A stretch of 64,000 bases of DNA from Nocardiopsis metallicus (GTDB lineage: Bacteria; Actinomycetota; Actinomycetes; Streptosporangiales; Streptosporangiaceae). Location: NCBI RefSeq assembly GCF_014201115.1, contig NZ_JACHDO010000001.1, positions 7,316,001 through 7,380,000 of the forward strand, in the 5' to 3' direction. Numbering within the stretch: position 1 is the first letter of the stretch; each line of letters opens with the position of its first letter. The notes beneath the pieces were generated by a model. It was not told where the DNA came from and searched no databases. It saw only the letters and a program-made list of their open reading frames with translations. A program made the position numbers and the translations under genes. Positions 14,900-35,005 of the stretch are shown in pieces.

Positions 14900-14906
14900 C
14901 ACCCGT

Positions 14907-14960
14907 GATCTTGCTACCAGGAGCGAGTTCGGCGCCGAACTTGCTCCTGGTAGCAAGATC
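14907..14960. repeat. 54-bp near-perfect palindrome sharing arms with 57784-57857
   Basis: Two 27-base arms with no spacer differ at one position. The outer sequence is GATCTTGCTACCAGGAGC. It starts 8 bp after the M48 stop codon, so it can act as a terminator. The same GATCTTGCTACCAG outer arm recurs at 57784-57857 after thrC, which makes it a dispersed element rather than a simple terminator. A lone half-site, AGCAAGATC, also occurs near 15033. Confidence 0.8.
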
Positions 14961-15215
14961 TACTGGTTCACCATGGTGGGTGTCGGGAGGGTTTCGACGG
15001 GAGCCGCCCGGCAGCGGCGCTGGGGTGACTCCAGCAAGATCTGTCCCGCGTGGACCTATCGATGACCTGTCCACCAGCGCTCGCAGGCCAAGGCCCTGGC
15101 CGCGGGAGTGACCTCATAGAAGCCTGTGCAGCCGATAACTCACAGTAGATCTGTCCCCCGGGCCAGGGCCCTGGTAGTCGTCCCGTTCCTGACCAAGAGG
15201 AAGCAGGACACCACC
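14961..15215 (+). other. Non-coding left flank of the IS110-type transposase
   Basis: This stretch of about 255 bp carries several potential hairpins: GTGGAC/GTCCAC at 15050-15055 and 15069-15074, GGCCA/TGGCC near 15087-15101, and the palindrome CCAGGGCCCTGG near 15163-15174. AGATCTGTCCC occurs twice, near 15038 and 15148. In IS110-family elements the non-coding end next to the transposase can encode a structured bridge RNA, so this is where one would be expected. I cannot place its ends. Confidence 0.3.
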
Positions 15216-15527
15216 ATGGTGACAGTGGGTATCGATCCGCACAAGGACATGCACCAGGCCGTCGCGCTGGCCCAGGACGGCACCCGCCTGGGCAGGGCCA
15301 AGAAGGTCAACACGGGCCCCCAGGCCCTGGGCCAGCTCTTGGCCTGGATCCGTGCCCTGGCCGCAAACAGCCCGGTGCTGTGGGCCATCGAGGGCGGCCC
15401 CGGCCTGGGCCGGGCCCTGGCCGACGCTCTGCTGGGGGCGGGCCAGGAGGTGGTGTGGGTGCCACCGCGCGCCATGGCCGCCCACCGCCGCCTGGGCGGG
15501 CCGGTGGGCGCCAAGTCCGACGTGTGA
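15216..15527 (+). pseudogene. IS110-family transposase, N-terminal fragment
   Basis: 103 residues of the RuvC-like domain, ending at a TGA created by the IS3 insertion. It keeps the first Asp (VGIDPHKDMHQ), the Glu (WAIEGG) and the third acidic residue (GAKSDV) of the DEDD tetrad. ATG 15216 follows AAGAGGAAG. The remaining Asp and the C-terminal domain are in the fragment at 16834-17592. Alone it cannot be an active recombinase. Confidence 0.88.
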
Positions 15528-15593
15528 TCTTGCTTCGGTTCGGTGGACAGGTGTCCGCTTTCGGATACTTTGTCATTGAACGAGGAGATTGAA

Positions 15594-15881
15594 GTGCCCA
15601 AGACCCGCCCTGCGTACCCGCCGGAGTACCGCGATCAGATCATCGCGCTGGCCCGCTCCGGCCGTAGCCCCGAGGACCTGGCAGCTGAGTTCGAACCCTC
15701 GGCCCAGACGATCCGCACCTGGATCAATCAGGCCAAGATCGACTCCGGCCAGGCAGAGGGCACCACCAGCGATGACAAGGCCGAACTGGCCCGCCTTCGC
15801 CGAGAGAACGCCCAGCTGCGCGAAGAGCGCGAGATCCTGCGCAAGGCCACGGCTTTCTTCGTCCGGGAGACCAGTCGGTGA
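15594..15881 (+). CDS. IS3-family transposase OrfA
   Basis: A 95-residue DNA-binding subunit. The N-terminal helix-turn-helix (YPPEYRDQIIALARSG through SAQTIRTWINQAK) resembles InsE-type proteins. A leucine-zipper-like helix follows (LARLRRENAQLREEREILRK, about 66-86). GTG 15594 has GAGGAG upstream. The frame extends back to 15543 but without a ribosome site. Its stop overlaps the start of orfB. Confidence 0.88.
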   Translation: MPKTRPAYPPEYRDQIIALARSGRSPEDLAAEFEPSAQTIRTWINQAKIDSGQAEGTTSDDKAELARLRRENAQLREEREILRKATAFFVRETSR

Positions 15882-16792
15882 TGTTCCGGCTGATCGACGA
15901 AGAAAAGACACGCCACTCCGTCTCCCTGATGTCCCGGCTGCTCGGCGTATCGCGGCAGGGCTACTACAAACACCACCACCGAATCCAGGACGGCCCCACG
16001 GCCAAGGAACGCTCCGACGCTGACCTGTCCGAGCGCATCCAGGGCCACCACGAGCGCTCCCGCGGCACCTACGGCTCCCCCAGGCTCCAGGCCGACCTGG
16101 CCGAGCTCGACGGCATCCGCGCTGGACGCAACCGCATCACCCGGCTGATGCGCCGCCAGGGCCTGGTCGGGGTCCACCGCCGCACCGGCCGCAAAAGCCT
16201 GACCTCCCAGGACCGGATGGCCACAGCCCCACCGGATCTGGTCGGTCGTGACTTCACCGCCCATGCCCCCAACACCAAGTGGAGCGCGGACATCACCTAC
16301 GTGCCCACCGACCAGGGGTGGGTGTACCTGGCGGTGGTGATGGACCTGTTCTCGCGCCGCATCGTGGGCTGGGCGATGGCCCCTCACATGCGCGCCGATC
16401 TGGTCTGCGACGCGCTGGCCATGGCGGTGACCGCCCGCCGTCCCGGTCCGGGGCTGATCCATCACTCGGACAAGGGATCGCAATACACCAGTCTGGCCTT
16501 TGGTCGCCGCTGCGAAGAGGCAGGGATCGCTCCCTCGACGGGGCGGACGGGGTCGTGTTACGACAACGCCGTCACCGAGAGCTTCTTCGCGTCGTTGGAG
16601 ACCGAGTTGATCGACCGCACCCGTTTCGCCACCAGGGCGGATGCGGAGCGGGAGGTGTTCTCCTATATCGAGGGGTTCTACAACCCCTGGCGGCGGCATT
16701 CGGCCAATGGTCAGCTCAGCCCGGCTGAGTATGAACGTCGCCACACCGAAGTTGCTCAAGACAGGCTTGCGGCGCTGTCTCAGGCCGCGTAA
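15878..16792 (+). CDS. IS3-family transposase OrfB (DDE integrase)
   Basis: A 304-residue catalytic subunit with an HTH_21-like N-terminal part and an rve integrase core. The DDE residues are visible: WSADITYV, HHSDKGSQY and AVTESFFASLETEL, with 35 residues between the second Asp and the Glu. The GTG start overlaps the orfA stop (GTGATG), so orfB is made either by re-initiation or, as in many IS3 elements, by a -1 frameshift producing OrfAB. Nothing in the frame is broken. Confidence 0.9.
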   Translation: MMFRLIDEEKTRHSVSLMSRLLGVSRQGYYKHHHRIQDGPTAKERSDADLSERIQGHHERSRGTYGSPRLQADLAELDGIRAGRNRITRLMRRQGLVGVHRRTGRKSLTSQDRMATAPPDLVGRDFTAHAPNTKWSADITYVPTDQGWVYLAVVMDLFSRRIVGWAMAPHMRADLVCDALAMAVTARRPGPGLIHHSDKGSQYTSLAFGRRCEEAGIAPSTGRTGSCYDNAVTESFFASLETELIDRTRFATRADAEREVFSYIEGFYNPWRRHSANGQLSPAEYERRHTEVAQDRLAALSQAA

Positions 16793-16833
16793 AACCCCAG
16801 CTCACAGGTGTCTACCGAACTGAAGCAACATCA

Positions 16834-17592
16834 GTGATCGACGCGGTGGCCATCGCGCGTGCGGCCCTGGCCGACCCTGGCCTGGCCCGTCACCGGATCG
16901 ACCCGCAGGTGCGGCAGGTGCGTGTGCTGGTGAACCTGCGCCAGAACCTGACCGATCAGCGTGTGGCCCTGACCAACCGGGTGCTGGCGGCGGTGCACAT
17001 CGAGCTGGACCACCGTCTGGGCCAGGGGGCGTTGGCCACCCGGGCCAAGGTGGGGCGGGTGCGTGCGCTGGTGGAGGGGGCCGGGTTGGACGAGATGGTG
17101 CGGTGGGCTCTGCTGGAGCAGTTGGAGGAGATCCACACCCTGTTCGTGCGTGCGGCCGAGGTGGAGCGGCGCCTGAAGGAGTTGGTGGAGCCGTTGGCGC
17201 CGAACCTGTTGGGGATTCGTGGTGTGGGTGTGGTCTGGGCTGCGGTGTTGCTTGCGCAGGTGGGGGATGTGTCGCGGTTTGCGACCTCGGCGAGGATGGC
17301 GCGGTGGGCGGGGAGCGCGCCGATTCCGGTGTTTTCCTCGGGGCGGGATCGGCACCGGTTGCACCGGGGTGGGAACCGGCAGGTGAATCGGGCGTTGCAC
17401 TCGATCGGGGTGGTCCAGGTCCGGCTGGGTGAGCCAGCGCGGGAGTTCGTGCGTTCCCGGGAGGGGGCCAAGGGCACCAAGGGTGCGTATCGGGCTTTGA
17501 AGCGGCATCTGGTGGATGTGGTGTATCGGGCGATGGTCGCTGATCAAGTGGTGAGAGGGCGGGCTGAGGTCTGTCTTCAACCCGCCACTTGA
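16834..17592 (+). pseudogene. IS110-family transposase, C-terminal fragment
   Basis: 252 residues continuing the fragment at 15216-15527. It starts at the duplicated GTG with IDAVAIARAALADPGL, which contains the fourth acidic residue of the DEDD tetrad. A coiled-coil linker follows, then the transposase_20 domain (GIRGVGVVWAAVLLAQVGD and ARWAGSAPIP..FSSGRDR), which holds the catalytic Ser region. The frame itself is undamaged, so only the IS3 insertion inactivates the gene. A GTG start could allow some translation of this part. Confidence 0.85.
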
Positions 17593-17624
17593 CATAGAAG
17601 CGTCATCGGGGGAGGGAGGGCGGG

Positions 17625-19796
17625 TTAGGCCTCCGAGCGCTCCTTGGCCAGGCGGCGCTCCACCTGCTCGGGGAGGCGTTCGTGGCGGAGGTAGTCGCGG
17701 GTGAAGACCCCCGTGCCGTGGGAGACCGAGCGCAGCTCCACGGCGTAGCGCACGATCTCCAGTTCGGGTACCTCCGCCCTGATCACCACCCGGCCGCCCG
17801 GCGCCGCCTCGGTGCCCACCACCCGGCCGCGGCGGGCGGACAGATCGCTCAGGACCGCGCCCAGGTAGGCGTCGTCGACCTCCACCGTCACCGTGTCCAC
17901 CGGTTCCAGGACGGCCAGCTCCGAGGTGGACGCGGCGTCGCGCAGGGCGAGGCGCCCGGCCTTCTGGAAGGCCATGTCCGAGGAGTCCACCGAGTGCGCC
18001 TTGCCGTCGTACAGGGTCACGCGCAGGTCCACCAGCGGGTGGCCGTGGTCCACGCCGTCTGCCATCTGGGCGCGTACGCCCTTCTCCACCGAGGGCACGT
18101 ACTGGCGGGGGACCACGCCGCCCACGACCTTGTCCACGAACTCCAGTCCGGCACCGGACTCCAGCGGCTCCACCCGGATCCGGCACACCCCGAACTCGCC
18201 GTGCCCGCCGCTCTGCTTGACGTTGCGGCCCATGCCCTGGCCGGGGCCGGTGAAGGTCTCCCGCAGCGGGATACGGACCTCCTCGGTCTCCACCCGGACC
18301 CCGTAGCGGTGTTCGAGCCGGTCCAGGGCGGCGTCCAGGTGGGCCTCGCCCAGGCTCCACAGGACCATCTGGTGGGTCTCGGGGTTGATCCGTACCCGAA
18401 GCGACGGGTCCTCCGCCACCAGGCGGGACACCGACTGGGACAGCTTGTCCTCGTCGGAGGCCGAGGCGGCGCGGATCGCCACCGGCATCATCGGATCGGG
18501 GAAGCGCCACGGCGGGACCCGGAACGGCAGTTCGGGCGCGGACAGGGTGTCCCCGGTCCGGGCCGCGGGCAGCTTCGAGACCAGGCACAGGTCACCGGCG
18601 ATCACCTCGCCCACCGGGCGGGCCTGGCGACCGAGCGGGACCGAGAGCGAACCCAGCCGCTCCTCGTCCCCGCTGCGGTCGAGCTCATCGGAGTTGCCCA
18701 GTCCGGTGCGCACCCCGTGGCCGTGCAGGTGGACGTCGACGTCGGGCACCAGCGTCCCGGAGAACACCCGTACCAGGCTGACCCGGCCCACGTACGGGTC
18801 AGTGGTGGTGCTCAGCACCTCGGCGACCAGCGGCCCCTCCGGATCGCAGGACAGGCCCTCGACCGGGTGGCCGTCGGGGCGGTTCACCGACGGGAACGGG
18901 CACCGGGTCGGGTCCGGGCAGGAGAGCGGGAGTTCGCGCAGCAGCTCGCGCACGCCCACGCCGCGGGTCGGGCTCAGCGCCAGCACCGGGTGGAAGCCGC
19001 CCGCGGCCACCGCCTTCTTGAGGTCGGCGATGAGCAGGTCCGGATCCAGCTCGCCGCCCTCCATGTAGCGCTCCATGAGCGCCTCGTCCTCGCTCTCGGT
19101 GATGACTTCCTCGATGAGGGTCTCCCGCAGCGGTCCCGCCTGCTCACGCAGCCAGTCGGGTGCCGGACACGAAGCGGGGGCGGACTCCATCCCGCCCCCG
19201 TCGGAGTAGTCGTAGTAGCGCTCCGAGACCAGACCCCAGAGCCCCACGAGTTCGCGTTGGTCGCCCGATCCCTCCACCGCGGGGACGTAGGCGGCGTGTA
19301 CCCCGGACCCGAAGGCGTCCTGACACTGTGCGACCACCTCGTCGAAGTCGGCTCGCGGGTGGTCGATCTTGGTGACGGCCACCGCCCGCGGCATGCCGAT
19401 GGCGGCGCACTCCTCCCACAGCATGCGGGTGCGCCCGTCCACGCCGTCCAGGGCGGAGATCACGAACAGGGCGGCGTCCGCGCCTCGCAGTCCGGCGCGC
19501 ATCGCCCCGATGAAGTCGGCGTAACCGGGGGTGTCCAGCAGGTTGACCTTGACATCGCCCACCATCACGGGGTTGACGGTCAGGTGCACGGAGCGCTTCT
19601 GCCGGACCTCGACCTCGTCGTGGTCGCTGACGGTCGTGCCCTCCTCCACACGGCCGGGGCGCTTGATCTCCCCGGCGGCGAGGAGCAGCGCCTCGACCAG
19701 GCTCGTCTTGCCCGCGCCGGTCGGCCCGACCAGCGCGATGTTGCGGATGTCCTGGGGCCTGGCGGCCCTCGGTACGGCTACGGCTCGGTCTACCAT
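17625..19796 (-). CDS. EF-G2-like translational GTPase
   Basis: A 723-residue elongation factor G-like protein. The P-loop GPTGAGKTSL is intact, but switch-2 reads DTPGYADF, with Tyr where canonical EF-G has the catalytic His, and the G4 motif reads TKID rather than NKxD. Domain II, III, IV (EFVDKVVGGVVPRQYVPSVEKG and HSVDSSDMAF) and V follow in order. These features fit the actinobacterial EF-G2/FusA2 group, which coexists with true EF-G and is reported to bind GTP with little ribosome-dependent hydrolysis. It stands alone, and its 3' end lies about 30 bp from the IS110 remnant. Confidence 0.85.
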   Translation of the reverse strand: MVDRAVAVPRAARPQDIRNIALVGPTGAGKTSLVEALLLAAGEIKRPGRVEEGTTVSDHDEVEVRQKRSVHLTVNPVMVGDVKVNLLDTPGYADFIGAMRAGLRGADAALFVISALDGVDGRTRMLWEECAAIGMPRAVAVTKIDHPRADFDEVVAQCQDAFGSGVHAAYVPAVEGSGDQRELVGLWGLVSERYYDYSDGGGMESAPASCPAPDWLREQAGPLRETLIEEVITESEDEALMERYMEGGELDPDLLIADLKKAVAAGGFHPVLALSPTRGVGVRELLRELPLSCPDPTRCPFPSVNRPDGHPVEGLSCDPEGPLVAEVLSTTTDPYVGRVSLVRVFSGTLVPDVDVHLHGHGVRTGLGNSDELDRSGDEERLGSLSVPLGRQARPVGEVIAGDLCLVSKLPAARTGDTLSAPELPFRVPPWRFPDPMMPVAIRAASASDEDKLSQSVSRLVAEDPSLRVRINPETHQMVLWSLGEAHLDAALDRLEHRYGVRVETEEVRIPLRETFTGPGQGMGRNVKQSGGHGEFGVCRIRVEPLESGAGLEFVDKVVGGVVPRQYVPSVEKGVRAQMADGVDHGHPLVDLRVTLYDGKAHSVDSSDMAFQKAGRLALRDAASTSELAVLEPVDTVTVEVDDAYLGAVLSDLSARRGRVVGTEAAPGGRVVIRAEVPELEIVRYAVELRSVSHGTGVFTRDYLRHERLPEQVERRLAKERSEA

Positions 19797-22422: not shown

Positions 22423-23691
22423 ATGATCCGATCTCGCTCCTCCGCCGCCGGGAAAGGTGACCCCGAGTTCACCGAGGCCGACCTCCCCGGCCTGAGGGGG
22501 CGCGGCTTCGCCCTGCTCATCCTGGCCACCGCGGCCGGACTGTGCGGGTTCGCCGCCGTCCTGCCCCTCGTGCCCCTGTGGGCCAGCCGGGGCGGCGCGG
22601 GCGAGTTCGGGGCGGGCGCCACCACCGCCGCGTTCATGCTCACCACCGTCATCACCCAGCTGGCCATGCCCTGGCTGCTGGACCACGCGGGCGGCTACCG
22701 GTGGGCGTTCCCGGTCGGATCCCTCATCATGGGCCTGCCCATGCCGCTGTTCGCCCTCACCACCGACCTCGGGCCGCTGGTGGCGGTCTCGGCGGTGCGC
22801 GGGGTGGGTTTCGGGATGGTGACCGTGGCAGGGACGGCGCTCGCCGCCCGCCTGGTCGCCAAGGAACAGGTCGGCCGGGCCACCGGCTACTACGGCCTCG
22901 CCGTCGGGCTCCCGCAGATCGTCATCCTGCCCGGCGGGGTGGCGCTGGCGCTCAGCATCGGATTCGACACCGCCTTCTGGCTCACCGGGATCTGCGGCGT
23001 GCTGGCGGCGGCGCTGGCCTCCGGCATCTGGTTCGCCGACGGCGGCCGCAACCGCGCGGCGCTGCGCGGAGCGGGCCCCGAGGCCGGGAAGGGGACCGCC
23101 GAGGCGCCGAGCGCCCCGCGCGGCCTCCCACTCCTGAGCGCCCTGGCCGCGCCGCTGATCATCATGCTGGTGGTGTCCTCGGCCGCCAGCGCCGTCGTCA
23201 CCTTCCTGGCCATCCCGTTCGAACAGGCGGCCTGGCTGGTCAGCGCACTACTGGCCGCCTACGCGCTGATGCTCGTCACCGGCAGGTGGACCGCCGGGGT
23301 CCTGTACGACCGCTACCGGCGCACCGTCCTACTGCTGCCCGGAACCCTCGCGGCGGTCGCGGGCACGGGGCTGCTCACCGCCGGGCTGTGGGCCAACGGC
23401 GACGGCTCGCCGGGGGCGGGCGTGGCCCTGCTGGTGCTGGGTGGGACGGCGCTGTTCGGGCTCGGGTTCGGCGCGGTGCAGAACGAGGCCGTCACCGTGA
23501 TGCTGGAACGCGCCGGACCGACCGGCTACGGGCGCGCCAGCGCGTGGTGGAACATCGGCTACGACGCGGGTACCGGGGCCGGGGCGATCGGCCTCGGCCT
23601 GGTCATCCAGCTCATGGGTTACGGACCGGCCTTCGCGATCGTGGCCGTGTCCCTGGCCGCGGTCCTACCACTGGCCCTGCGCCGGAAGTGA
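22423..23691 (+). CDS. MFS transporter
   Basis: A 422-residue protein with about twelve membrane helices, a central hydrophilic loop (about 205-230) and a motif-A-like DHAGGYR after helix 2. The overall plan is that of a drug or metabolite exporter of the major facilitator superfamily. AAAGGACGG precedes ATG 22423. It ends 28 bp from the convergent hydrolase gene at 23720. The substrate is unknown and there is no adjacent regulator. Confidence 0.85.
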   Translation: MIRSRSSAAGKGDPEFTEADLPGLRGRGFALLILATAAGLCGFAAVLPLVPLWASRGGAGEFGAGATTAAFMLTTVITQLAMPWLLDHAGGYRWAFPVGSLIMGLPMPLFALTTDLGPLVAVSAVRGVGFGMVTVAGTALAARLVAKEQVGRATGYYGLAVGLPQIVILPGGVALALSIGFDTAFWLTGICGVLAAALASGIWFADGGRNRAALRGAGPEAGKGTAEAPSAPRGLPLLSALAAPLIIMLVVSSAASAVVTFLAIPFEQAAWLVSALLAAYALMLVTGRWTAGVLYDRYRRTVLLLPGTLAAVAGTGLLTAGLWANGDGSPGAGVALLVLGGTALFGLGFGAVQNEAVTVMLERAGPTGYGRASAWWNIGYDAGTGAGAIGLGLVIQLMGYGPAFAIVAVSLAAVLPLALRRK

Positions 23692-32887: not shown

Positions 32888-33883
32888 ATGGGACAGCCCC
32901 CGACCCCGAACGGCCCGCAGGGCCCCTACCCGGGGCAGCCCGGCCCGCCGCCCGGGTTCGGACAGCAGCCGCCCCAGGGCCCGCCCGGGCAGTACCCGCC
33001 GCAGGGGATGCCCCCGCAGGGGCCGCCGCCCGGTTACGGCCAGCAGCCTCCGGGATATGGCCAGCAGCCGCCCCAGGGCCCGCCGCCCGGGTTCGGACCG
33101 CAGCCTCCGCAGGGCCCGCCCGGGCAGTTCCCGCCGCAGGGCCCTCCCGGGCAGTACCCTCCCGGCCACGGCCCTCAGGGGCCCGGTGCCGGTGCTCCGA
33201 AGAAGAAGACCGGTCTGATCATCGGCGGTGCGGCCGCGGCGGTGCTGCTGATCGTGGTGGTCGGTGGTGTGCTGGTCCTCGCCAACTCCGGCGGTGAGTA
33301 CGTCTCCCTGCCCAACGACTGCTCCGAGGCGGTCGACGGCTCGTTCCTCGAACCGTTCTTCGAGGACGGACCCCCCGCGCTGAGCGGTGGCTTCGACGCG
33401 GACGACCGCAGCATCGATTCCTCCTACGGGACCCTGAGCTGCAGCGGTGAGTCCGGTGGCGTCACCGTCGAGATCAACGCGGAGCTGGTCGACCTCGAGG
33501 ACCCGCAGACCCTGGAGGAGTTCGAGGAGGTCTTCGACGGGACCCAGTTCAACGACGAGTTCATGGACGAGCAGGCCCAGCCCGGTGAGATCCACGAGGA
33601 GGACTTCGGTTTCGGCATGACCGCCTCCTACCTTTGGGACCAGACCAACGTGGGGGACCAGAGCATCGCGCTGGCCATGGCCAGCGACGCCGGTGAGGAC
33701 TTCTCCGACGTCCCCGGCGCCTCGAACAACTTCGCCATGGGCGTCTTCCTCACGGACAACATCGCCGGCGGCATCATCGTGAACGACAGCGAGGGCGGGC
33801 GCGACGTGCAGGATCTGTTCAACACGATCGACTTCGCCAGCGGTGACCTGGCCAACCAGCTCAAGCGCGTGGCCGACAAGTAG
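32888..33883 (+). CDS. Proline-rich membrane-anchored protein, paralogue 1 of 4
   Basis: A 331-residue protein. The first 100 residues are Pro/Gly/Gln-rich repeats (GQQPPQGPPPGFG-like), presumably cytoplasmic. PKKKTGLIIGG then leads into one membrane helix (about 108-128) and an acidic outer domain (about 130-331) that begins EYVSLPNDCSEAV. A second Cys occurs in TLSCSG. The same plan, including an opening Y-x-S/A-L-x-x-C motif, recurs in the next three genes. No enzyme motif is visible. ATG 32888 follows a GAGGTAA site. Confidence 0.78.
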   Translation: MGQPPTPNGPQGPYPGQPGPPPGFGQQPPQGPPGQYPPQGMPPQGPPPGYGQQPPGYGQQPPQGPPPGFGPQPPQGPPGQFPPQGPPGQYPPGHGPQGPGAGAPKKKTGLIIGGAAAAVLLIVVVGGVLVLANSGGEYVSLPNDCSEAVDGSFLEPFFEDGPPALSGGFDADDRSIDSSYGTLSCSGESGGVTVEINAELVDLEDPQTLEEFEEVFDGTQFNDEFMDEQAQPGEIHEEDFGFGMTASYLWDQTNVGDQSIALAMASDAGEDFSDVPGASNNFAMGVFLTDNIAGGIIVNDSEGGRDVQDLFNTIDFASGDLANQLKRVADK

Positions 33884-34075
33884 AGACGTGACCCGCGGGG
33901 CCGTGCGGGGACCGTAGGGGTGCCGGGTGGCCAGGAGTGGCCGTTGGGGGCCTGTGGTCGTTCGGGTACCTCGGGTGTCCGGTAGAAGTGGGGGGTTCGT
34001 TTCCTCCTCTTTTGAAGACTCCGGTCGTCGGTTGACGCGGATCTTCCAGTGACATGGATCTGCGAGGCACCATTC

Positions 34076-35005
34076 ATGGGACAGCCCCAGCCCCCGTACG
34101 GCCCCCAGGGGCCGCGACCCCCGCACGGCCCGCAGGGGTCGCAACCCCCGCACGGCCCGCAGGGCCCCTTCCCGGGCCAGCCCGGCCAGCAGCCCCAGGG
34201 TCCGCCGCCCGGGTTCGGGCAGTTCCCGCCGCAGGGTCCTCCCGGCCACTTCCCGCCCGGACAGCAGCCGCCCGGACAGCAGCCGCCCGGTTTCGGGCCC
34301 CAGGGTCCCGGCCCCGGCGGTCCGAAGAAGAAGACCGGCCTGATCATCGGCGGTGCGATCGGCGCCGCGGTGCTGCTGATCATCGTCGGCACCCTGGTGT
34401 CCGTCAACTCCGGCCGGGACTATGTCTCCCTGCCCAGGGACTGCGCCGAGGTGGTCGGTGACAACGTCCTCGACGACCTCTTCGACGGCTCACCGCCGCG
34501 GCTGGATGGCACGTTCCAGAGGGACGCCTCCGATTTCGACCTCTTCGGAGCGAGCTTCCACGGAGCCTTGGCCTGCGCCGCCGGGAACGACGACGTCGAC
34601 CTGACCCTCGCCGCCCTTCTGATCGACCGCGAACGGTCGAGCTGGGACGTGGATCGCTACTTCGAGGAGGCCCTGGAGGAGTTCGAGGACCTGACCGATG
34701 GGATCGTCCCGCGCGGTGAGGTCGTCGACCGCGACTTCGGCTACGGGGGCGACGATGCCCGGGGCTACTGGGACACCCCCTCGATCGGTGACCGGAGCAT
34801 GGCCGTCGGGGTGGACGACGGCAGGGGCCGCAGCTACCAGTCGGAGTTCGGGGTGGCGATCGTCCAGAAGAACAACGCCGTCATCGTGGTGAACGTCGAC
34901 TACTCGGGGTCCTCGCGGACGCCGGACGTCGAGGAGCTCTACGACACCGTGACGTCGGTCGCGGGTTCGGTCGTCAAACAGATCCCGCGCGTGGCCGAGC
35001 GCTAG
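34076..35005 (+). CDS. Proline-rich membrane-anchored protein, paralogue 2 of 4
   Basis: A 309-residue protein closest to paralogue 1: MGQPQPPYGPQG head, proline-rich repeats to about residue 80, the same PKKKTGLIIGG before a membrane helix (about 85-108), then DYVSLPRDCAEVV at the start of the outer domain, a second Cys in LACAAG, and DFGYGGDDARGYWDTPSIGD aligning with DFGFGMTASYLWDQTNVGD of paralogue 1. It has its own 190-bp upstream region, so it may have a promoter. The function is unknown. ATG 34076 was chosen by alignment with paralogue 1. Confidence 0.78.
   Translation: MGQPQPPYGPQGPRPPHGPQGSQPPHGPQGPFPGQPGQQPQGPPPGFGQFPPQGPPGHFPPGQQPPGQQPPGFGPQGPGPGGPKKKTGLIIGGAIGAAVLLIIVGTLVSVNSGRDYVSLPRDCAEVVGDNVLDDLFDGSPPRLDGTFQRDASDFDLFGASFHGALACAAGNDDVDLTLAALLIDRERSSWDVDRYFEEALEEFEDLTDGIVPRGEVVDRDFGYGGDDARGYWDTPSIGDRSMAVGVDDGRGRSYQSEFGVAIVQKNNAVIVVNVDYSGSSRTPDVEELYDTVTSVAGSVVKQIPRVAER

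What the first reader, a model, noticed from the sequence alone, without database searches (positions are those of the whole stretch)
15216..17592. IS3 insertion between the two final acidic residues of an IS110 transposase
The IS3 element (15525-16833) has 25-bp ends matching at 22 positions and a GTG target duplication. Deleting it plus one GTG rejoins ...AKSDV with IDAVAIARAAL in frame, restoring a 354-residue DEDD transposase. The cut falls inside the D-x-x-D pair that completes the active site. Both halves are otherwise undamaged, so the insertion looks recent.
Basis: partly seen in the sequence, partly recalled or inferred. Interest (0 to 1): 0.6.

Follow-up and report, generated by a model that had tools for sequence, protein, structure and literature searches.

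The report
One jumping gene inside another
In a Nocardiopsis-like bacterium, one common mobile element (IS3 family) has landed inside the recombinase gene of another (IS110 family), which is an ordinary event; the interrupted element keeps the region for its guide RNA, and that region fits the repeated DNA hairpin at which it sits.

Summary
An IS3-family element (15525-16833, 1309 bp, ends matching at 22 of 25, GTG duplication) splits an IS110-family recombinase gene between codons 103 and 104, inside the D102-V-I-D105 pair of the DEDD site. Of the 12 other IS3 copies with both ends, 11 are base-identical to this one, so 'recent' is supported. It is an ordinary nested insertion that breaks one of six IS110 copies. 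Beyond the finding: the IS110 element spans 14961-17604 with a probable TC core, and the region before its gene has a two-loop fold with four stretches matching its own target and ends, as a bridge RNA would. It sits at the arm end of a 54-bp palindromic repeat, as do 16 of 18 close copies in three genomes of the genus. Where the right target guide differs between species, the target mostly differs with it (one copy of 18 does not fit). These are new members of known kinds. Loss of activity, and any mobilisation in trans, are inferred.

The parts
14907..14960 (.). 54-bp palindromic repeat, target of the IS110 (left flank)
   Evidence: Arms 27 nt, 96% complementary; half-pattern found 84 times in the genome, 0 in the control
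14961..17604 (+). IS110-family element, IS3 included; core TC at 14959-14960 and 17603-17604
   Evidence: Ends from 18 copies in three genomes and from the site without IS110 in G014; the one- or two-base extent of the core is inferred
15014..15175 (+). Predicted bridge-RNA region with two stem-loops
   Evidence: Three-species fold; 14960-15215 is 100% identical in all six own copies. Transcript not shown
15033..15041 (+). Predicted left target guide AGCAAGATC
   Evidence: 9-nt match to the left target
15060..15065 (+). Predicted right target guide CGATGA
   Evidence: Complement of right target TCATCG; differs between species together with the target; weak when taken alone
15115..15123 (+). 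Predicted left donor guide CATAGAAGC
   Evidence: 9-nt match to the element's right end
15143..15149 (+). Predicted right donor guide CAGTAGA
   Evidence: Complement of the element's left end, 7 nt
15216..15524 (+). 5' half of the IS110 recombinase gene, residues 1-103 (D7, E59, D102)
   Evidence: Pfam PF01548, alignment to IS621, intact copies
15522..15524 (.). GTG target duplication, left
15525..16833 (+). IS3-family element, 1309 bp; inverted ends 15525-15549 and 16809-16833
   Evidence: 22 of 25 end matches; models for OrfA and OrfB
15594..15881 (+). IS3 OrfA (start codon chosen by me)
   Evidence: Pfam PF01527, NCBIfam NF033516 positions 1-85
15878..16792 (+). IS3 OrfB; its frame is open from 15776, in -1 frame to OrfA
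   Evidence: Pfam PF00665, NCBIfam NF033516 positions 91-369; overlap of frames; slippage not shown
16834..16836 (.). GTG target duplication, right
16837..17592 (+). 3' part of the IS110 recombinase gene, residues 104-354 (D105, Tnp domain) and stop
   Evidence: Pfam PF02371, intact copies

Best explanation
An IS110-family element of the bridge-RNA type entered this chromosome at the arm end of a palindromic repeat between an M48 peptidase gene and an EF-G2 gene, and was later hit by an IS3-family element that duplicated GTG and put a stop codon directly after D102-V103. This copy can no longer make a whole DEDD recombinase: the 5' fragment lacks D105 and the Tnp domain, the 3' fragment lacks D7, E59 and D102. 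Shown: the anatomy, the intact copies, a site without either element in a sister genome, the guide matches. Inferred: that this copy is inactive, that the predicted guides act, that the IS3 makes OrfAB by frameshifting.
For: Exact junctions and duplication; 5 of 5 other close copies intact with single GTG; 4 of 11 copies in G014 open over 354 codons; 12 of 13 end-complete IS3 copies, this one included, base-identical; family models; DEDD alignment to IS621, where mutation of each of the four residues abolished recombination (PMC11208158, passages); site without IS110 or IS3 in G014; guides and targets in three genomes, fold.
Against: No reads or PCR, so the assembly is taken on trust, in a genome with 13 near-identical IS3 copies and an estimated contamination of 6.39%. 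Five of the 13 IS3 copies lack a 3-bp duplication. One G014 copy (L128) does not fit its guide at the right target. The right target guide alone, and to a lesser degree the right donor guide, match no better than chance allows (50% and 9.7% of simulated sequences). The fold of the window sequence is only mildly better than shuffles (z -1.89).
Confidence: 0.93

Rival explanations
1. Assembly artefact: the many IS3 and IS110 copies were wrongly joined and no nested copy exists.
For: 13 near-identical IS3 copies and 6 near-identical IS110 copies in the assembly.
Against: A wrong join at a repeat would not place an exact 3-bp duplication on both sides and continue the same IS110 in register; no other IS110 copy in the genome has an IS3 at this site from which such a junction could come.
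Confidence: 0.04
2. The split is used: the IS3 leaves precisely, or its right end drives the 3' fragment from the in-frame GTG, so that recombinase activity is regulated rather than lost.
For: The duplicated GTG stands in frame before I104 and could serve as a start codon.
Against: The first codon of the IS3 stops the 5' half; the single interrupted copy of six gives no sign of selection for the arrangement; no case is known to me.
Confidence: 0.01
3. The broken copy is still moved in trans by recombinase from the intact copies (compatible with the best explanation, an addition to it).
For: Both ends present and 14960-15215 identical in all six copies; movement with transposase and non-coding region in trans reported for ISEc11, an IS1111-group element (PMC11187229, passages).
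Against: Only one interrupted copy among six in the genome. In G014, 7 of 11 copies have single-base deletions, five of them the same one and two another, which could mean spread of broken copies, but all three places are homopolymer runs, so sequencing error is as likely.
Confidence: 0.2

Closest known systems
IS110 family, IS110 group (IS621 of E. coli; PMC11208160, PMC11208158)
   Same: DEDD RuvC-like domain and Tnp domain, long non-coding left part before the gene with two-loop fold, guides in the published order and sense, landing at palindromic repeats
   Different: Core reads TC here against CT in IS621; recombinase only distantly alike (phmmer E 7.4e-11); this copy is interrupted
REP-targeting IS elements (ISPa11, ISPpu9, ISPpu10, ISRm19 of the IS110 family; PMC1525189)
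   Same: An IS110-family element found again and again at a palindromic intergenic repeat
   Different: Another repeat family and an actinobacterial host; REP function of this repeat not tested
IS3 family
   Same: OrfA and OrfB in -1 frame, integrase core, TG...CA ends, 3-bp duplication
   Different: Nothing notable seen; subgroup not determined, as ISfinder is not at hand

Membership tests
IS110 family (IS110 group) | Recombinase with PF01548 and PF02371 domains | tested here: met
   Halves apart and intact copy; NF033542 above cut-off for the intact copy
IS110 family (IS110 group) | DEDD residues | tested here: met
   D7, E59, D102, D105 align with IS621 and are invariant in 7 aligned proteins
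IS110 family (IS110 group) | Catalytic serine of the Tnp domain (S241 in IS621) | tested here: inconclusive
   S270 is invariant in 7 proteins, but the pairwise alignment has a gap near S241
IS110 family (IS110 group) | Long non-coding region before the gene with target and donor guides | tested here: met
   Guide matches and three-species fold; RNA itself not shown
IS110 family (IS110 group) | RNA-guided recombination through a circle | not testable with these tools
   Needs an assay
IS3 family | OrfA with helix-turn-helix and OrfB with integrase core | tested here: met
   OrfB 340 bits against a cut-off of 160
IS3 family | Inverted ends TG...CA and 3-4 bp duplication (recalled) | tested here: met
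   22 of 25, GTG
IS3 family | OrfAB made by -1 frameshifting (recalled) | not tested
   Frames overlap by 106 nt in -1 register; slippage needs an experiment
REP sequences as IS110 target | Many intergenic palindromic copies | tested here: inconclusive
   84 half-pattern matches, control 0; intergenic placement was seen only at the window site

The most novel reading that the evidence does not exclude
The recombinase-dead copy lives on as a non-autonomous, guide-RNA-bearing element: recombinase from the intact copies acts on its untouched ends with the identical bridge RNA, so that the IS3 rides as cargo of an RNA-guided element to further palindromic repeats.
Probability: 0.2. Interest if true: 0.4.

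Novelty: new member of a known kind. Interest (0 to 1): 0.2.

Why it matters
As a nested insertion it matters little: one of six copies is broken. The by-product is of more use. Three genomes of one genus give a small natural experiment in which the right target guide of an IS110 bridge RNA and the sequence right of the insertion point have changed together, and a family of palindromic repeats that takes an IS110 at its arm end and, in the cases looked at, IS30 and IS701 elements at its centre.

Tried and rejected
Spread of broken IS110 copies in G014: 7 of 11 copies carry single-base deletions (one place in 5 copies, another in 2, a third in 1, which also has the first); first read as broken copies that had multiplied. 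All three places are homopolymer runs, so sequencing error cannot be excluded and the argument was dropped.

Targeting of the IS3 to the D-x-x-D codons: no common motif among 8 duplications and no second IS3 in the other own or G014 IS110 copies; rejected.

IS110 relatives in the named genome collection: the 3' half as query found none.

Rfam at gathering thresholds gave only one tRNA in the window, so the bridge RNA rests on guide matches, fold and comparison. In one search the script reported, for the right target guide, a tied 6-nt match in a C/G run at 15155 rather than CGATGA at 15060, and 50% of simulated sequences did as well; the case for that guide is the comparison between species.

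A drug-resistance gene beside the element was looked for: the EF-G-like gene at 17625-19796 passes the EF-G2 model (1112 bits, cut-off 890) and stays below the tetracycline-protection model (259 bits, cut-off 775, best 25 of 27 families shown); the MFS gene at 22423-23691 has no NCBIfam match. Eleven window proteins were scanned: the four IS pieces and seven neighbours between 10574 and 23688; the rest of the window was not annotated.

Full report
What was checked. The stretch 14900-17900 was read and open frames between 8000 and 26000 listed. The IS3 spans 15525-16833 (1309 bp); its 25-bp ends match at 22 positions, begin with TG and end with CA; GTG stands at 15522-15524 and 16834-16836. The left frame runs into TGA, the first three bases of the IS3, after residue 103.

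Is the interrupted gene a real IS110 gene? Yes. The 3' half was searched against the assembly (7,776,555 bases in 2 contigs; the window is contig 1, 7316001-7380000). Six places match at E 0.001 or better: the window's own and five others, all five with an open frame. In 5 of 5 the site has one GTG and the protein is 354 aa; differences from the window's halves are 0, 0, 0, 1 and 2 residues, and 2, 2, 2, 4 and 11 nt. Pfam and NCBIfam put each half apart and an intact copy as a whole in the IS110 family. Against solved structures the intact copy finds IS621 (8wt6) and ISCro4 (9t56), with D7, E59, D102 and D105 on the DEDD positions. That the four IS621 residues are D11, E60, D102 and D105, and that mutation of each of them or of S241 abolished recombination, is from passages of PMC11208158. 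The cut between V103 and I104 parts the third acidic residue from the fourth, and the first 103 residues from the Tnp domain.

How old? IS3 OrfB has 33 matches in the genome, 13 of them full length and 100% identical in protein, the window's included. Those 13 have both ends; 12, the window's included, are identical over 1309 bp and one differs by one base; 8 of 13 have a 3-bp duplication and 5 do not. Two more matches, L020 (94% identical) and L021 (partial), were left out of that count because both ends were not found exactly. Among 40 genomes of the genus, own included, 4 have OrfB at E 1e-120 or better: own (15 matches), G014 (5, of which 3 full length and 100% identical), G017 (84%) and G034 (83%). 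The insertion is recent in the sense that neither element has decayed; no date can be given.

Which organism? The neighbouring M48 peptidase gene finds 37 loci in the named collection, 30 of them titled Nocardiopsis (best N. ganjiahuensis, 93%), the other 7 titled Streptomonospora (3), Allosalinactinospora, Actinorugispora, Nocardiopsaceae and an actinomycete MAG.

Where does the IS110 begin and end? Comparison of six own copies, eleven in G014 and one in G011 puts the left end after ...AGATC and before TACTGG, and the right end at ...AAGCGTC. In G014 the place between the same two genes has neither IS110 nor IS3; there ...AGCAAGATC is followed directly by ATCGGGGGAGGGAGGG, the window's left flank next to its right flank. 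In that genome the centre of the palindrome is occupied by another element, with an IS30-family transposase (NF033563, 245 bits, cut-off 80). TC is common to the target, both junctions and both ends, so I take it as the core; a one-base core is not excluded. The element is 14961-17604.

What is the target? The left flank is a 54-bp palindrome. A pattern for half of it has 84 matches in the genome, 40 forward and 44 reverse, and none when read backwards. Five of six own copies, eleven of eleven in G014 (three of these with an altered palindrome centre) and none of one in G011 lie at an arm end CTGGTAGCAAGATC, 16 of 18 in all. The own copies L002 and L003 share both flanks and are probably one insertion that was duplicated. 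The two exceptions still have CAAGATC at the left.

The bridge RNA. Rfam has no match here at gathering thresholds. Durrant et al. [quoted passage not shown] In the 255 nt before the gene I find, in that order and sense, AGCAAGATC (15033-15041), CGATGA (15060-15065), CATAGAAGC (15115-15123) and CAGTAGA (15143-15149). In 5000 first-order Markov sequences a match as long occurs in 0.16%, 50%, 0.2% and 9.7% of cases, all four together in 0 of 5000; two of the four are thus weak alone. The three species' sequences fold into two stem-loops, one around each guide pair; 3 of 59 pairs have a change on both sides that keeps the pair. The window's sequence alone is only mildly more stable than shuffles (z -1.89; 6 of 200 fold as well).

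The comparison between species is the best evidence. Right of the insertion, own copies read TC-ATC in 6 of 6 (TC-ATCG in 5), and the guide is CGATGA; G014 copies read TC-ACG in 10 of 11, and the guide ends CGTGA; the G011 copy reads TC-ACGAGAA, and the guide is TTCTCGTGA, a run of 9, while its left target TACAAGATC goes with a left guide TACAAGATC that has changed likewise. For own copies the run of right-target letters that fit is 5 to 7 with the own guide and 3 with the G014 guide; for ten G014 copies it is 5 with the own guide and 3 with the G000 guide. One G014 copy (L128, TC-ATCC) goes against this: it fits the G000 guide (5) better than its own (3). As background, free arm ends with a following A number 135 in G000 and 191 in G014; they continue ATC in 69 and 94, ACG in 29 and 51 (counts whole, lists capped). 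Against that background 10 of 11 ACG in G014 has a chance of 1.5e-5, ATC in 5 of 5 independent own copies only 0.035. Copies within a genome share history, so these numbers are no proof.

How it works, then. Shown: nested anatomy, intact relatives, a site without either element, matching guides. Inferred: this copy makes no working recombinase; its bridge RNA may still be made; recombinase from five intact copies could act on it. Movement with transposase and non-coding region supplied in trans has been reported for ISEc11, an IS1111-group element (PMC11187229, passages), not for this one.

What is known. IS110 elements at REP sequences were described in 2006 (PMC1525189, passages); bridge RNA and natural re-direction of target guides in 2024 (PMC11208160, PMC11187229; passages). 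A search for insertion sequence, nested, IS110, IS3 and interrupted together returned one paper, on Mycobacterium avium subsp. paratuberculosis, of which I saw the listing only. Searches for Nocardiopsis with palindromic insertion sequence and with IS110 returned 3 and 2 papers, whose listings do not point to this. Most subscription papers, and ISfinder, were not searched.

Noticed in passing
14907-14960 and genome-wide: A family of about 54-bp palindromic repeats: 135 arm ends CTGGTAGCAAGATCA in the own genome and 191 in G014, none in the reversed control.
   Followed up: partly
L142 812-2002 (G014); L139 and L140 (own genome): Other IS elements sit at the centre of the same palindrome: an IS30-family one in G014 at the site orthologous to the window's, and elements of about 1.85 kb flanked by GGCGCC in L139 and L140, the one of L139 with an IS701-family transposase (L140 not scanned).
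   Followed up: partly
L141 1001-1341: A palindrome centre filled by about 300 bp with inverted ends resembling those of the L139 element, without a long open frame: perhaps a deleted or MITE-like derivative.
   Followed up: no
L128 (G014:C1:3619651-3621912): The one G014 IS110 copy whose right target (TC-ATCC) fits the own-genome guide rather than its own; its first 14 right-flank bases equal those of own copy L004.
   Followed up: no
L008, L009, L010, L012, L018, L019: Five of 13 IS3 copies lack the 3-bp duplication, and L018 and L019 share the same 15 bases on the left: signs of recombination or duplication between IS3 copies.
   Followed up: no
L129-L135 (G014): Single-base deletions in homopolymer runs of 7 of 11 IS110 copies, one of them in five copies: slippage, sequencing error or spread of a broken copy.
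   Followed up: partly
window 32904-34703: Repeated stretches 1.1-1.2 kb apart, GC-rich and in part of proline-glycine-glutamine type by eye; perhaps two duplicated neighbouring genes.
   Followed up: no
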